Shown here: in pieces, positions 92 to 25,833 of the stretch
How positions within the stretch are numbered: the first letter of the stretch is position 1
Layout of the letters: each line of letters opens with the position of its first letter
From: Bacillaceae bacterium JMAK1
GTDB taxonomy: Bacteria > Bacillota > Bacilli > Bacillales > Marinococcaceae
Reading direction: 5' to 3'
Assembly: GCA_012970285.1 (NCBI GenBank)
Contig: JIBW01000003.1
Span: 248,001 to 312,000, forward strand
Length of the DNA: 64,000 bases
The notes under the pieces: model-generated
Told to the model about the DNA's origin: nothing
Databases searched by the model: none
What the model saw: only the letters and a program-made list of their open reading frames with translations
Position numbers and translations under genes: made by a program

Positions 92-409
92 GTGAGTCGA
101 GCAACAGAGAATACACAATTTACGTGTGAGCATTGTGGAATGCGAGTTGAACCTCTGGAAAACGGCAGTTATCGTAATCACTGTCCAAACTGTTTATACT
201 CCAAACACGTGGACGTCATTCCAGGCGATCGCGCATCAACATGCCACAGTTTAATGGAGCCTATAGACCTAAAATCTCATTCGAAAAAAGGCTTTCAATT
301 GCTTCATCGATGCCTTCAATGTGGTCATGAACAATATAACAAAATTGCCGAGGATACAGCACAAAGCGACGATATCATCGCTTTTATGCGAACACGAAGT
401 CGTGACTAA
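92..409 (+). CDS. RNHCP domain protein
   Basis: Small 105-residue protein with four CxxC/CxxxC-like cysteine pairs, the pattern of a paired zinc ribbon. The first pair is CEHC (about residues 12-15); the family signature RNHCPNC follows at about 28-34, and a second ribbon CLQC lies near 75-78. This matches the RNHCP domain family, whose biochemical role is not known; zinc binding is inferred from the cysteines. It starts at GTG, preceded by GGAGGA at about 76-81. A rho-independent terminator follows directly, so it is probably monocistronic. Family assignment is firm; function is unknown. Confidence 0.85.
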   Translation: MSRATENTQFTCEHCGMRVEPLENGSYRNHCPNCLYSKHVDVIPGDRASTCHSLMEPIDLKSHSKKGFQLLHRCLQCGHEQYNKIAEDTAQSDDIIAFMRTRSRD

Positions 410-523: not shown

Positions 524-1915
524 TTGAAGAGACTGATCGGTATGAGTATGGTAAGTGTTTTACTATTTGGTATTCACTATTCTTCCTTGTTTGCAACAGA
601 CATGTTTATAAAATCCGATAATGAAGTTTCACTTTTAGACGTCAAGCCGATTGAACATCAGTCGGATTCTTCTCGAACGATTCAGCACCCGGGACAGCTG
701 GAAGTAGAGCAGAATCTAGGAACCGATGAGTCGTTTGAATGGCGAGCCGATCGCGAAGTCGTCGCTGGACAAGTGTTAACAATTAATTTTCTCGTAGAGG
801 CAAATGAACGGGCAAGTGGAACATTGAGATATAACGCTGATCATTTGGAATTGCAAGATGTGGAATTAAGTCGTAACGGGGAAGTTGAACGAAAGAATAA
901 TAGGGTTTCTATAGAGATCAAGGATGAAGGCATTAGTAAAGGGAGTGCAACTTTTCAAGTAAAAGAAGATGTGATTGGCACGACGGATATTTCGATGGAA
1001 GAACTCATGATTGATCACAAGTCTCATGAAAATGAAGTACTTGAAGTGAACGTCGTTCCAGCGTTACATCTTGAGATTGAGGGGCGATCCGTGGGACATG
1101 ATACTGAAGTTTTTGTTACAGATGACAACGGGAATGGCGTAGAGGGTGCCACACTACATGTAGAAACCGATGTTCCTCGTGTTCAGACGAAGGAAGTAAC
1201 GTCGCTTTATCATGAGCTCGATGAACAACAAGAGAGCCATTGGTTCCCGGTTGGACCACATACGCATTATCACGCATATGAAGAAACGACGACAAGTGAT
1301 GGTGACTTTATAGAAATATCCGGAGATGATCAAGCGAAGACTTATTTAAAAAAAATGGACGCAGAGCCTGTTGATTGGAGTGAAATCCCGCTCACTGATA
1401 AAAAGGGGTACGCAGTTACGGACATTTTAACAGCTCTTGAAGGTGAAGTGAGAGTTCAAGCTGTTGCTCCTGACGGTCGTAAGAGCGAAGTGTGGGAAGG
1501 CGAGATTGTCAAAGCACTTGGTGATGATCAACCTGAAAATGTGACGTTAGATTGGTACAATGAACAGCCAAACAGTCAAACCGTTCATTTTGAAGCACAC
1601 CCTAAAGCAGAGACGGGCTTTATAGAAATTGTGGAACAGCGTGATCCAGAGAAATTTTATAGCGCTGCGTTGAAGCGCTACGAGGCTTCAACAGAGTTGG
1701 TCTATGAGGAGCATGGGGAGAAACGGTTGTTCACATCTGTGGTAACAGAACTTGATCCTGGAGTGACGTATACCTATCGTGTCAATGTTGACGGCAATTG
1801 GAGCGAAGAATCGTCGTTTATGGCTACCAATCGCTTTTTTGAAACGAAAGGTGAGCGAATGAATGCGGCTAAAAAACCAAATTCATTTCTTTCGTATCAC
1901 CTAAAAGAAAGATAA
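524..1915 (+). CDS. Secreted protein of unknown function with Ig/FN3-like domains
   Basis: Protein of 463 residues starting at TTG, with GGGGAG about 9 nt upstream. Residues 1-25 form a signal peptide (positive MKR, hydrophobic core, cleavage near FAT). Residues about 70-180 alternate short beta-like strands ending in an EVLEVNVVP segment, as in cohesin- or invasin-like Ig domains. Residues about 340-440 resemble an FN3-type domain like the N-terminal one of purple acid phosphatases (DPGVTYTYRV, then WSEESSF), but no phosphatase catalytic domain follows. No sorting signal or SLH repeat is seen, so it is probably released or loosely held. I do not recognise a specific family and assign no function. 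Confidence 0.6.
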   Translation: MKRLIGMSMVSVLLFGIHYSSLFATDMFIKSDNEVSLLDVKPIEHQSDSSRTIQHPGQLEVEQNLGTDESFEWRADREVVAGQVLTINFLVEANERASGTLRYNADHLELQDVELSRNGEVERKNNRVSIEIKDEGISKGSATFQVKEDVIGTTDISMEELMIDHKSHENEVLEVNVVPALHLEIEGRSVGHDTEVFVTDDNGNGVEGATLHVETDVPRVQTKEVTSLYHELDEQQESHWFPVGPHTHYHAYEETTTSDGDFIEISGDDQAKTYLKKMDAEPVDWSEIPLTDKKGYAVTDILTALEGEVRVQAVAPDGRKSEVWEGEIVKALGDDQPENVTLDWYNEQPNSQTVHFEAHPKAETGFIEIVEQRDPEKFYSAALKRYEASTELVYEEHGEKRLFTSVVTELDPGVTYTYRVNVDGNWSEESSFMATNRFFETKGERMNAAKKPNSFLSYHLKER

Positions 1916-1997
1916 AAATCGAATAAGGATCACTCACATCTCGGTAGCGTACGCATAGGCTGTAGTACGGATTTAAAGAAAGGAAGTGAGACGATCC

Positions 1998-2300
1998 GTG
2001 CAAAATGAAACGTTATATCCTTATGCGGACGTAACCATTGACTCTGATCAATCTCGACAGTTCCATGGAGGCCATGGTCACGGACATGGACACGGACACG
2101 GACACGGTCATGGCCACGGACATGGTCGACCGAGACCGCCACGACCGGGATTCGGTCCAGGGTTTGGGTTTGGTGGAGGCTTTATTCCAGGCTTAGTAAT
2201 TGGAGGATTAGCAGGAGGAGGATACGGTCCTGGATATTATCCATACCCACCGCCACCACCCCCGCCTCCTTACCCGTACCCTCCTTATTATTCATACTGA
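1998..2300 (+). CDS. His-Gly repeat, Pro/Tyr-rich small protein
   Basis: Low-complexity protein of 100 residues. After a normal N-terminal 22 residues comes a (HG)n tract with about ten histidines alternating with glycine, then an RPRPP basic hinge, a GF-rich stretch, a short hydrophobic IPGLVIGGLAGGG segment and a PYP/polyproline-tyrosine tail. I chose GTG at 1998 over the in-frame GTG at 1986, because AAAGGAAGTGAG lies at the right distance only for the former. The His tract could bind Ni, Cu or Zn; the Gly/Tyr/Pro composition is like spore-coat or surface proteins of bacilli. Function is inferred from composition only. Confidence 0.6.
   Translation: MQNETLYPYADVTIDSDQSRQFHGGHGHGHGHGHGHGHGHGHGRPRPPRPGFGPGFGFGGGFIPGLVIGGLAGGGYGPGYYPYPPPPPPPPYPYPPYYSY
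2070..2126 (+). repeat. Tandem GGNCAY (Gly-His codon) repeat
   Basis: About nine head-to-tail copies of a degenerate hexamer (GGACAC, GGTCAT, GGCCAC and so on) encode the His-Gly tract. Such a tract can change length by slippage. Confidence 0.75.
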
Positions 2301-2429: not shown

Positions 2430-2459
2430 TTGAAAATAAGTAACGTTGAATGCTATGAT
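2430..2459 (+). promoter_or_regulatory. Candidate sigma-A promoter for the DprA-like gene
   Basis: TTGAAA (2430-2435), an 18-nt spacer and TATGAT (2454-2459), about 115 nt before the coding start. The leader in between shows no obvious terminator. Confidence 0.5.
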
Positions 2460-2574
2460 GAAGGCAATAGTTAAGAGGTAGAGGTATATATAAAAAGCAA
2501 CCTTAGACTTATCTTAACTAGATGATTGACCTATATAGAGAGAAAAATATCATGTAAAAAGAAGGGTGAATACA

Positions 2575-3753
2575 GTGCAAATGAAGGAGATGGATTCTAG
2601 GTTTTTACGACCGATCATTGAACAGGAGATCTTGTTTGCAAGTGAAGCAGCCGCTTATTTAGGGATTACACCGCAACGCTTGAATCAGCTCGTGCATACT
2701 GGTAAGGTGAAGCCGGTTCGGACAAGCCCAAGTGGAAATTTATATTTAAGAAGTGATATGGAAGAACGTAGAAAACGTATGCACGGAAACCAAATTGCTT
2801 ATATATCAGCACTATTTGAAAAGAATGAAGAGTCGACCGTTTATGAGGCAATGAATTACTTTACAATTCAATCGATTTTTAATGGTTCAGACAAGAAGGC
2901 AACGTCAGAGTTTGAACGGTTAGCGGAGAAGTTTCACTTAACTGAAGAATTGTCAAAAAACTTGCGCTTAATTGCTGATGACTTAGGTGTAGAACTCGAA
3001 GTGATGGAGAAAGCTTACACAGCGGTAGTCGGTGGATTCCAACAACTTGGAGTGGATGATTACATCGTAAAAAAAGGTCAGAGTCATTATCCGAACAAAC
3101 TGTCTGAAATTTCCGATGCTCCTTTGTTCCTATTTATGCGTGGAAACCCTGATCTGTTAACTCAACGGCTTATAACGGTAGTCGGTGGAAGGAAGACGAC
3201 GGAAAACGGAGAAGCCATGGCTTACGAATTGTCGAAAGAGCTCGGACAAGAAGGGTATGTTATTGTTTCTGGATTATCGAAAGGCATTGACTCAGTCGTT
3301 CAACAAGCAACCGTTAATCATCAATTGCCGACGGTGGCTGTTTTAGGTACACCAATCACTCATTTTCACCCACGTGAGCACCAAGTGCTTCAAGGACAAT
3401 TAGAAGATCACGGGTTAGTCATTTCGCAATTTCCACCTTCAGTAAAGGTGCAACGCTGGCATTTTCCAATGCGATACGCACTCATGAGTGGAATTTCAGA
3501 AGCGACGGTCATGATTGAGTCGACGGATAAGAGTGAAGTGCTTGAGCAAGCAGATTATGCTTGTAAGTATAAGCGCCCACTGCTGTTGCCTCAAGTTGCA
3601 TTGGATGATCGCAAATTACAATGGCCAAACCGATATATAGATTACGGCAAAATGTATGCCTATCGCAAACCTATTGACGTGAAGAAGCGTATGGAAATGC
3701 TAGCATCCGAAGGTGTATCGAGTGCGCGTTACGCACAACAAACAATCGGATAG
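2575..3753 (+). CDS. DprA/SMF-like Rossmann protein with N-terminal HTH
   Basis: Protein of about 392 residues. Residues about 10-60 form a MerR/excisionase-like helix-turn-helix (ASEAAAYLGITPQRLNQLV, then a basic wing). Residues about 65-170 are mostly helical and unassigned. Residues about 180-345 match the DNA-processing (DprA/SMF, SLOG-fold) domain: VVGGRKTTENG, SGLSKGID, AVLGTPI, PREHQVL, ISQFPPS, FPMRYALMSG. DprA loads RecA on single-stranded DNA during transformation. This gene lacks the usual C-terminal winged helix and the usual N-terminal SAM-like domain, and is not beside topA or sucD as in B. subtilis, so it looks like a paralogue with another role. GTG 2575 is preferred over GTG 2566, which overlaps the GAAGGG ribosome site. 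Operon partner downstream is 11 nt away. Confidence 0.75.
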   Translation: MQMKEMDSRFLRPIIEQEILFASEAAAYLGITPQRLNQLVHTGKVKPVRTSPSGNLYLRSDMEERRKRMHGNQIAYISALFEKNEESTVYEAMNYFTIQSIFNGSDKKATSEFERLAEKFHLTEELSKNLRLIADDLGVELEVMEKAYTAVVGGFQQLGVDDYIVKKGQSHYPNKLSEISDAPLFLFMRGNPDLLTQRLITVVGGRKTTENGEAMAYELSKELGQEGYVIVSGLSKGIDSVVQQATVNHQLPTVAVLGTPITHFHPREHQVLQGQLEDHGLVISQFPPSVKVQRWHFPMRYALMSGISEATVMIESTDKSEVLEQADYACKYKRPLLLPQVALDDRKLQWPNRYIDYGKMYAYRKPIDVKKRMEMLASEGVSSARYAQQTIG

Positions 3754-3764
3754 AAGGGATCGTT

Positions 3765-4466
3765 ATGACGAAAAAACCGATCATTGGCATTACTTCACAT
3801 ATGGATGAAAACGGTACGCACCTTATGAGTCAGGATAATATTCGACGGATTTCAAATGAAGGTGGAGTTCCGATCATCCTACCGAATGTTCCTAATGAAG
3901 CGTCGATTCCAAGAATGGTTTCATCGATCGATGGCCTTGTTGTTACTGGTGGAGGGGATATTGATCCAACTTTGTTTGGTGAAGAACCCCATCTTAAATT
4001 GGGAACCATTCACCCAGATCGAGATGCCTTTGAAATGATGCTAATTCAAGCCGCTTTAGAAGTTAACCTTCCAATTCTTGCAATTTGTCGAGGGTGCCAA
4101 ATCTTGAATATTGCTTCAGGTGGAGATATGTATCAAGACATCTATAGTCAACACGATGTAGAATTGTTGCAACATCAACAACGGGCACCGAGGAATCATG
4201 TGTCTCATTTTATTCAAGTTGATGACGGTACGTTGCTGCAGCGAATTTCTAAGTCTAGTCGTTATAAGGTCAATAGTTTTCATCATCAAGCGGTACGCCG
4301 TCTGGCTCCTGGTTTTCGGCGATCTGCAACTTCTTCTGATGAGATCATTGAAGCTTTTGAAAGTGAACGTCACTCTTTTGTTATCGGAGTGCAATGGCAC
4401 CCGGAGAACTTATTCGACGATGACTATGCCAATCGTCTATACGAAGCGTTTATTGCGAGCGCGTAA
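3765..4466 (+). CDS. Class I amidotransferase, gamma-glutamyl hydrolase (PuuD/PF07722) type
   Basis: Protein of 233 residues of the peptidase C26 family, which cleaves gamma-glutamyl bonds such as gamma-glutamyl-GABA in putrescine breakdown. Catalytic features are present: nucleophile Cys108 in AICRGCQ, the His212/Glu214 dyad in VQWHPE, and the GGGDIDP turn (about 62-68) typical of this group. Length matches the family (about 230-250). It lies 11 nt after the DprA-like gene on the same strand and is followed by a terminator, so the two may be co-transcribed, but no functional link is evident. The actual substrate cannot be told from sequence. Confidence 0.85.
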   Translation: MTKKPIIGITSHMDENGTHLMSQDNIRRISNEGGVPIILPNVPNEASIPRMVSSIDGLVVTGGGDIDPTLFGEEPHLKLGTIHPDRDAFEMMLIQAALEVNLPILAICRGCQILNIASGGDMYQDIYSQHDVELLQHQQRAPRNHVSHFIQVDDGTLLQRISKSSRYKVNSFHHQAVRRLAPGFRRSATSSDEIIEAFESERHSFVIGVQWHPENLFDDDYANRLYEAFIASA

Positions 4467-25601: not shown

Positions 25602-25815
25602 AAGACCCCCACCTCAAAAAAGAGGCGGGGGTCCCGCGGTACCACTCTCGTTAACGTTATAAACGTTCACTTTCGCATAACGGTACGATTGCCGGCTGTT
25701 CGTACTCAGTGTTCAGAACAACATCTTAGAAGTCCGCTTCACGATTCTGTTCCTACCGGCTTGCACCAAACCCGGCTCGCTATGAGTGAACACCATCGCT
25801 ACTCTCTTCATCGTC
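25602..25815 (-). ncRNA. T-box leader of argS
   Basis: Read on the minus strand: stem I starts at GACGATGAAGAGAGTAG; the AG-bulge/platform region is GCGAGCCGGGTTTGGTGCAAGCCGG (25 nt at about 25755-25780); the antiterminator has the invariant AGTGGTACCGCGG (near 25635-25648); a GACCCCCGCCTC/GAGGTGGGGGTC terminator with TTTT follows (25602-25634). The presumed specifier, 5' of ACTTC in GTGAAGCGGACTTC, reads CGG, an Arg codon, in agreement with the downstream gene. Uncharged tRNA-Arg would favour the antiterminator. Confidence 0.9.
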
Positions 25816-25833
25816 GATTGTATATTGAGATTT

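What the first reader, a model, noticed from the sequence alone, without database searches (positions are those of the whole stretch)
2575..3753. DprA-like Rossmann protein fused to a DNA-binding HTH, outside the competence context
Seen: core DprA motifs are kept (VGGRKTT, SGLSKGID, AVLGTPI, FPMRYALMSG), but an excisionase/MerR-like HTH and a helical block replace the normal N-terminus, and the C-terminal winged helix is missing. Known: standard DprA loads RecA in transformation, and SLOG-fold relatives serve in nucleotide signalling and phage defence. A nucleotide- or ssDNA-sensing regulator is a possible role; that is inference.
Basis: partly seen in the sequence, partly recalled or inferred. 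Interest (0 to 1): 0.6.

Follow-up and report, generated by a model that had tools for sequence, protein, structure and literature searches.

The report
Orphan DprA-type antitoxin with DNA-binding domain
This gene looks like the antitoxin half of a phage toxin-antitoxin pair that a salt-loving bacterium kept after the toxin was lost, and that has been preserved as a stand-alone DNA-binding protein whose job is still to be found.

Summary
The gene is real (392 aa, GTG at 2575) and is not the species' DprA. A canonical dprA sits beside topA elsewhere in the same genome. The protein is an excisionase/MerR-like HTH joined to a complete DprA body, so the 'helical block' is DprA's own N-terminal domain. 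Its nearest full-length relatives, in Geobacillus phage phiOH2 and other Bacillota, are followed by a phosphoribosyltransferase: DprA-PRTase (ShosTA/PsyrTA-like) toxin-antitoxin pairs. In 7 of 7 such HTH pairs a palindrome TTGATAATNATCAA overlies the -35 box, which suggests that the HTH represses its own operon. In Geomicrobium (5 of 5 genomes) and an unnamed Bacillota family (6 of 6) the gene is chromosomal. Where examined, both lack the toxin and the operator. They also share loss of pocket residues kept in 44 of 44 other rows, and they form one clade. The gene is not decaying: dN/dS is about 0.04, against 0.10 for canonical dprA, with no amino-acid change in the 70-residue N-terminal (HTH) region across three species. 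Best reading: a domesticated orphan antitoxin now serving as a DNA-binding protein. Whether it acts in transcription or recombination is unresolved; the second lineage places it directly before addB. New variant of a known kind.

The parts
2575..3753 (+). HTH-DprA-like gene, 392 aa, GTG start, GAAGGG ribosome site at 2561-2566
   Evidence: orthologues start at the same place in two close species
2608..2772 (+). excisionase/MerR-like HTH (residues 12-66)
   Evidence: residues 1-70 carry no amino-acid change in three species
2824..3039 (+). helical domain equivalent to the N-terminal domain of DprA/ShosA (about residues 84-155)
   Evidence: structure alignment; model
3055..3669 (+). DprA Rossmann domain (residues 161-365)
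3292..3303 (+). pocket change: x-A-A-H of relatives is S-V-V-Q here (residues 240-243)
3475..3477 (+). pocket change: N of R-N is Y here (residue 301)
3532..3540 (+). pocket change: S-G-[SA] is S-E-V here (residues 320-322)
2430..2459 (+). promoter-like TTGAAA - 18 - TATGAT with TG before the second hexamer, largely kept in JCM 19039
2468..2520 (+). inverted repeat TAGTTAAGA / TCTTAACTA just after the promoter; same in two close species, not in JCM 19039 or G. halophilum; role unknown
92..409 (+). RNHCP-domain gene, the upstream neighbour kept in all five Geomicrobium loci
3765..4466 (+). Peptidase C26 (glutamine amidotransferase-like) gene that stands where a toxin gene would be expected; absent from this place in G. 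halophilum

Best explanation
The gene is a stand-alone descendant of the antitoxin of a mobile DprA-PRTase (ShosTA/PsyrTA-like) toxin-antitoxin pair. In the paired ancestors the added HTH most likely binds a palindrome over the -35 box and represses the operon, while the DprA body restrains the PRTase toxin (inferred). In the Geomicrobium lineage the toxin and the operator are absent and pocket residues are changed (shown). The protein is kept under strong purifying selection as a chromosomal DNA-binding protein (selection shown; DNA binding inferred from the HTH and the retained basic face). My choice for its present job is a dimeric DNA-binding factor, more likely a transcription regulator with new targets than a recombination accessory. 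Confidence: about 0.85 for the antitoxin origin and orphan state, about 0.45 for a regulatory role.
For: Origin: phiOH2 gene_32 (42% over 93% of the query) is followed by a PRTase; so are relatives in Salibacterium, a Clostridiales MAG, B. haikouensis, B. tequilensis, viral contig L104 and genome G483. Those partners hit the PRTase part of PsyrT (E 8.5e-15 to 1.4e-9) and ShosT (5 of 5 tested). Tree: all 27 canonical DprAs lie on one side of a branch (98/98) and the antitoxins on the other; the Geomicrobium rows nest inside the HTH clade (99/94). Orphan state: synteny in Geomicrobium and no full-length PRTase partner in 5 of 5 Geomicrobium genomes, against 1.2e-166 in Salibacterium. Operator: 7 of 7 HTH pairs with 2 mismatches or fewer, 0 of 12 orphans. 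Selection: dN/dS 0.041 and 0.047, Rossmann 0.022-0.027, N-terminal 70 codons 0 nonsynonymous; canonical dprA 0.10-0.11. The HTH is the best kept part against the second orphan lineage (55-58%, Rossmann 33-36%).
Against: No target site is known. The ancestral operator has no exact copy in this genome, and its one-mismatch places are nearly all inside open frames, so no regulon was found. The second orphan lineage sits in an apparent operon with addB, which points to recombination instead. The PADLOC ShosA model does not separate this protein (197.5 bits) from the canonical DprA of the same genome (209.5 bits). Toxicity of the PRTase partners is inferred from homology alone. Reports on ShosA cited in a review describe DNA binding and recombination, not transcription (PMC12593503, passage seen).
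Confidence: 0.55

Rival explanations
1. Recombination or repair accessory: the protein binds DNA ends or ssDNA and helps RecA/AddAB-type repair, as ShosA is reported to promote recombination.
For: In the sister orphan family the gene lies between smpB and addB, addB starting about 10 nt after its stop in 4 of 4 loci examined. Of six ssDNA-contact positions of S. pneumoniae DprA (PMC4066776, passages seen) four remain basic here: R115, K144, K175, K202 as R206, K236, R267, R294. A review says ShosA binds DNA and likely promotes recombination.
Against: The acid equivalent to D243 of the DprA-RecA interface is D/E in 27 of 27 canonical rows and in 0 of 27 antitoxin-side rows, P here. In Geomicrobium the neighbours are not recombination genes. 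G. halophilum has lost two of the four basic positions.
Confidence: 0.25
2. Immunity function: the orphan antitoxin neutralises PRTase toxins brought in by phages or other mobile elements.
For: Close paired relatives live in phages and prophage-like loci; E. coli RqlI, another DprA-like antitoxin, also occurs without its partner in 1.2% of strains (PMC4670107, passages seen).
Against: Pocket residues kept in every paired antitoxin compared (13 of 13, 7 with HTH and 6 without) are lost; the gene is fixed in the genus (5 of 5 genomes) with lower dN/dS than canonical dprA, unusual for an arms-race gene.
Confidence: 0.15
3. Ligand-sensing regulator: the Rossmann pocket binds a nucleotide or ssDNA base and controls the HTH.
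For: SLOG/DprA fold fused to an HTH.
Against: H243, N301 and G321 are lost in all five Geomicrobium rows; the sister orphan family has lost the first two and S320. That these residues line the pocket is recalled, not computed here.
Confidence: 0.07
4. It is the species' working DprA or a decaying paralogue.
For: Pfam DNA_processg_A well above cut-off.
Against: Canonical dprA present beside topA; dN/dS below that of canonical dprA.
Confidence: 0.02

Closest known systems
HTH-DprA + PRTase pair of Geobacillus phage phiOH2 (genes 32 and 31)
   Same: same HTH + DprA architecture over the full length, 42% identity; the window protein matches PHROG_38708, function unknown, over residues 2-363
   Different: paired with a PRTase, operator over the -35 box, pocket residues intact
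ShosA of ShosTA (PDB 8zva, E. coli)
   Same: top Foldseek match (E 6.1e-18); DprA-type antitoxin
   Different: no N-terminal HTH aligned; the E. coli-type ShosA (P2_4C9 row, whose motifs equal those of 8zva in the alignment) lies on a very long branch, so close kinship is unresolved; no ShosT here
RqlI/PsyrA of RqlHI/PsyrTA
   Same: DprA-like antitoxin joined to an HTH, sometimes found without its partner (PMC4670107, passages seen)
   Different: there the HTH is C-terminal and dispensable for antitoxicity, and the toxin is a RecQ-like helicase with a PRTase domain
Canonical DprA (S. pneumoniae 3uqz; own gene at G000:C4)
   Same: same fold, Z 29.4 over 276 residues
   Different: no HTH, keeps the pocket residues and the RecA-facing acid; different branch of the tree

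Membership tests
Canonical DprA | the genome's dprA, in the usual locus | tested here: not met
   another dprA sits between sucCD and topA
Canonical DprA | NCBIfam dprA equivalog cut-off (TIGR00732, 191.15 bits) | tested here: not met
   157.6 bits
Canonical DprA | invariant pocket residues H, N, SG | tested here: not met
   27 of 27 canonical rows keep them, this protein does not
Canonical DprA | acidic RecA interface (E235, D243, E265 of S. pneumoniae) | tested here: not met
   E235 is D327; D243 is P335; E265 not alignable
Canonical DprA | groups with DprA orthologues | tested here: not met
   27 canonical rows on one side of a 98/98 branch, this protein on the other
DprA-PRTase antitoxin (ShosTA/PsyrTA-like) | adjacent PRTase toxin gene | tested here: not met
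   next gene is Peptidase C26; no full-length partner in the genome; met by 7 relatives
DprA-PRTase antitoxin (ShosTA/PsyrTA-like) | descent from that group | tested here: met
   nested in the HTH clade, 99/94; 98/91 and 97/95 for the orphan clade inside it
DprA-PRTase antitoxin (ShosTA/PsyrTA-like) | match to the PADLOC ShosA model | tested here: inconclusive
   197.5 bits, but the own canonical DprA scores 209.5
DprA-PRTase antitoxin (ShosTA/PsyrTA-like) | neutralises the toxin | not testable with these tools
   needs co-expression
Excisionase/MerR-like HTH proteins | HTH fold and sequence of the family | tested here: inconclusive
   PHROG_4691 excisionase E 1.2e-14, but Pfam HTH_17 below cut-off and structure matches weak
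Excisionase/MerR-like HTH proteins | binds a defined DNA site | not testable with these tools
   an operator is predicted only for the paired relatives

The most novel reading that the evidence does not exclude
An antitoxin of phage DprA-PRTase modules became a fixed chromosomal protein in two distant Bacillota lineages. It dropped toxin, operator and ligand pocket together and kept its HTH and most of its basic face, and now controls or assists DNA-end processing or recombination, for example alongside AddAB. That would be a new family of domesticated DNA-transaction proteins, not a DprA and not an antitoxin.
Probability: 0.3. Interest if true: 0.7.

Novelty: new variant of a known kind. Interest (0 to 1): 0.52.

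Why it matters
DprA-like proteins outside competence are often annotated simply as DprA (as in the plasmid records). This case gives a traceable path from a phage toxin-antitoxin operon to a conserved solitary chromosomal gene, with three coupled losses (toxin, operator, pocket) that can be dated and tested. It also gives a predicted operator (TTGATAATNATCAA over the -35 box) for the HTH-bearing DprA-PRTase modules, which I did not find described in the searches run.

Tried and rejected
Rejected: the species' own DprA; decay; a hidden toxin in trans: in Geomicrobium the PRTase profile matches only short stretches (39-81 profile positions for those with a locus) around the PRPP motif, most of them in frames whose sizes (about 230, 320 and 490 aa) fit housekeeping ComFC, Prs and PurF (the names are my recollection). 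Independent origin of the two orphan lineages: first suspected from the shared pocket loss, but the tree joins them (98/91) even with pocket columns removed (97/95). Both have long branches, so attraction is not excluded.

Led nowhere: a viral-contig scan with the single protein found nothing. A regulon by the ancestral operator: of the 27 loci examined, 24 have the site inside an open frame and 3 between frames; the enrichment over the reversed pattern is not a fair control, since words with CTA/TAG are rare. The inverted repeat at 2468-2520 is shared only by near-identical species, and the leader folds only slightly better than shuffles (z -1.85). Paper searches for the ShosTA mechanism found only a review passage; the primary study it cites (Pu et al. 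2025) was not held or seen. The term ShosTA as a word start was swamped by surnames.

Rows dropped: JCM 19039 from the trees (frame broken in the draft, where its canonical dprA also reads as only a 139-aa frame); L051 (broken pair) from trees and counts; L105 not analysed (38,099 bases, the length of phiOH2); the P2_4C9 row from the second and third trees (branch 3.6), with 17 of 27 canonical rows left out there for speed. Five of the seven operators were used to find the motif; only L104 and L165 are out of sample, each with 2 mismatches (shuffle share 0.035 and 0.01 of 200). Fisher tests (2e-5; 0.003 with orphans collapsed to four lineages) ignore kinship among the paired rows.

Full report
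What is there. The window comes from a Geomicrobium genome: named relatives are G. sediminis at 95% and Geomicrobium sp. JCM 19038 at 94% protein identity. The frame 2575-3753 codes for 392 aa after a GAAGGG ribosome site. Pfam finds DNA_processg_A at residues 165-360 and a weak HTH_17 at 23-64. PHROG_38708 (unknown function) matches residues 2-363 at E 1.6e-87, and an excisionase PHROG matches 6-70 at 1.2e-14. An AlphaFold model (mean pLDDT 86.3) has ShosA 8zva and pneumococcal DprA 3uqz as best Foldseek matches. The second look gives 3uqz Z 29.4, rmsd 3.7, 276 aligned, and 8zva Z 26.6, rmsd 3.7, 276 aligned, both starting at model residue 84-87. The helical block is therefore the usual DprA N-terminal domain, and only the HTH is extra. 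A model of the HTH alone has BldC, excisionases and MerR proteins as its nearest structures, at weak scores.

It is not the species' DprA. The genome has a second match, 284 aa, between sucCD and topA-trmFO-xerC-hslVU (gene names by my reading of the translations). ComK is not found in 3 of 3 close Geomicrobium genomes; in G. halophilum only a stretch with four stops inside matches.

Relatives and context. Among 37 phage records with a match only the two of phage phiOH2 cover 80% of the query, and 0 of 253 plasmid records do. In phiOH2 the gene is followed by a 'predicted amidophosphoribosyltransferase'. The same pair occurs in Salibacterium halotolerans next to a recombinase-like gene (the recombinase is my reading of the translation), in a Clostridiales MAG, B. 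haikouensis and B. tequilensis, and in viral contig L104 and genome G483. Five of five partner proteins tested hit the PRTase part of PsyrT and the ShosT model. These are DprA-PRTase modules of the ShosTA/PsyrTA kind. A paper on P2/P4 hotspots describes such a DprA+PRTase defence pair and names DprA homologues as antitoxins of shosTA and rqlHI (PMC9122126, passages seen). A review states that ShosT is a phosphoribosyltransferase and pyrophosphatase and that ShosA binds DNA and likely promotes recombination (PMC12593503, passage seen).

The orphan lineage. In Geomicrobium the gene is found in 5 of 5 genomes (one frame-broken draft, JCM 19039) in the same place, downstream of an RNHCP gene, with no PRTase next to it. 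A profile of the partner toxin finds no full-length match in those five genomes but 1.2e-166 in Salibacterium. The gene is rare around it: 4 of 397 genomes of the order match at E <= 1e-40. Further toxin-less HTH copies are in Bacillus sp. IITD106 and an Erysipelotrichaceae MAG, and in an unnamed Bacillota family f65, where 6 of 6 genomes held have the gene. For the five f65 genomes examined there is no PRTase within 1.5 kb and no full-length partner in the genome. In f65 it lies between smpB and addB, addB starting about 10 nt after its stop in 4 of 4 loci examined (the Pfam match to AddB, SmpB and RNase R was made for one of the four, the others by similarity to it).

Tree. With 44 rows and 293 columns, the 27 canonical DprAs form one side of a branch (98/98) and the antitoxin-type rows the other. 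The 12 HTH rows form a clade (99/94) with Geomicrobium inside it. The E. coli-type ShosA row (P2_4C9) has a branch of 3.6 and its exact place is unsure. In a second tree of 35 rows Geomicrobium and f65 are sisters (98/91), next to two paired rows. With pocket columns removed they stay sisters (97/95). Long branches on both sides leave some doubt.

Three coupled losses. (i) Toxin, as above. (ii) Operator: TTGATAATNATCAA was seen upstream of the paired genes. It embeds the -35 hexamer, with a -10-like hexamer (4 to 6 of 6) 15-17 bp downstream, in 7 of 7 HTH pairs: five exact, L104 and L165 with two mismatches, L165 and Salibacterium within perfect palindromes of 36 and 40 nt. It is also there, with one mismatch, in a locus whose contig ends too soon to see a toxin. 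It is absent (3 or more mismatches) in 12 of 12 orphans, and in 7 of 7 antitoxin-type genes without the HTH and 3 of 3 canonical dprA genes tested. Two of the seven are out of sample. (iii) Pocket: H243, N301 and S320-G321 (window numbering) are kept in 44 of 44 other rows: 27 canonical, 7 without HTH, 7 HTH pairs and 3 other HTH copies. In Geomicrobium H, N and G are lost in 5 of 5 rows; in f65 H, N and S are lost in 5 of 5. Calling this the ligand pocket is recalled knowledge of the DprA/SLOG fold, not computed here. Two toxin-less copies (IITD106, RUG246) keep the pocket, so its loss does not follow at once from loss of the toxin.

What is kept. Against G. sediminis the gene shows 20 nonsynonymous and 99 synonymous differences, dN/dS 0.041. 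Residues 1-70 show no amino-acid change with 8 and 11 synonymous ones in two comparisons, and the Rossmann part has dN/dS 0.022-0.027. The canonical dprA of the same genomes has 0.10-0.11. Against f65 the HTH is 55-58% identical while the Rossmann part is 33-36%. Of six ssDNA-contact positions of pneumococcal DprA (PMC4066776, passages seen) four stay basic in the window protein; in f65 the four g159 rows keep five and the g202 row three, and G. halophilum keeps two. The acid facing RecA (D243) is D/E in 27 of 27 canonical rows and in 0 of 27 antitoxin-side rows.

How it most likely works. Shown: descent from the paired antitoxins, loss of toxin, operator and pocket residues, and strong selection, strongest on the HTH. 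Inferred: in the ancestor the HTH repressed the operon from the -35 palindrome while the DprA body held the toxin in check. In the orphan the HTH now binds other DNA sites, with the dimeric DprA body as scaffold. Transcription control is my first choice and a recombination role the main rival, since addB adjacency in f65 and the retained basic face speak for it. No target was found: the ancestral operator has no exact copy in this genome and its one-mismatch places are mostly in open frames.

Comparison with the known. It works like neither a standard DprA nor, by present evidence, an antitoxin. It belongs by descent to the DprA-PRTase antitoxins but fails their defining pairing. RqlI shows that such antitoxins can occur alone, in 1.2% of strains (PMC4670107, passages seen). 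The PADLOC ShosA model cannot decide, since it scores the canonical DprA of this genome higher. In the paper library used I found no description of an orphan HTH-DprA or of this operator; preprints and most subscription journals are not held there.

Noticed in passing
window 25618-25823 (-): T-box leader, 116 bits, the only Rfam match in the window at gathering score.
   Followed up: no
window 1986-2300 (+): Small protein with a Gly-His repeat run and a Pro-Tyr tail and no Pfam match; 62-65% identical over about 85 residues in two close Geomicrobium species.
   Followed up: no
window 524-1915 (+): Gene with a purple acid phosphatase N-terminal domain match, faster evolving (dN/dS 0.22) than its neighbours.
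   Followed up: partly
L074 (G003, Geomicrobium sp. JCM 19039): The canonical dprA of this draft also reads as only a 139-aa frame, so the broken HTH-DprA frame there may be an assembly fault rather than a pseudogene.
   Followed up: partly
L197-L200 (unnamed Bacillota family f65): HTH-DprA sits between smpB and addB, an apparent operon link of a DprA-type antitoxin relative with the AddAB nuclease.
   Followed up: partly
L068 2366-3839: Burkholderia phage Mana carries an HTH-less DprA gene overlapping a PRTase gene, another DprA-PRTase pair in a Peduoviridae phage.
   Followed up: partly
L004 2340-7387: Two large secreted proteins with S-layer-homology-like N-termini (my reading) lie upstream of the window; similar-looking genes lie upstream of the locus in JCM 19038 and JCM 19039.
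   Followed up: no
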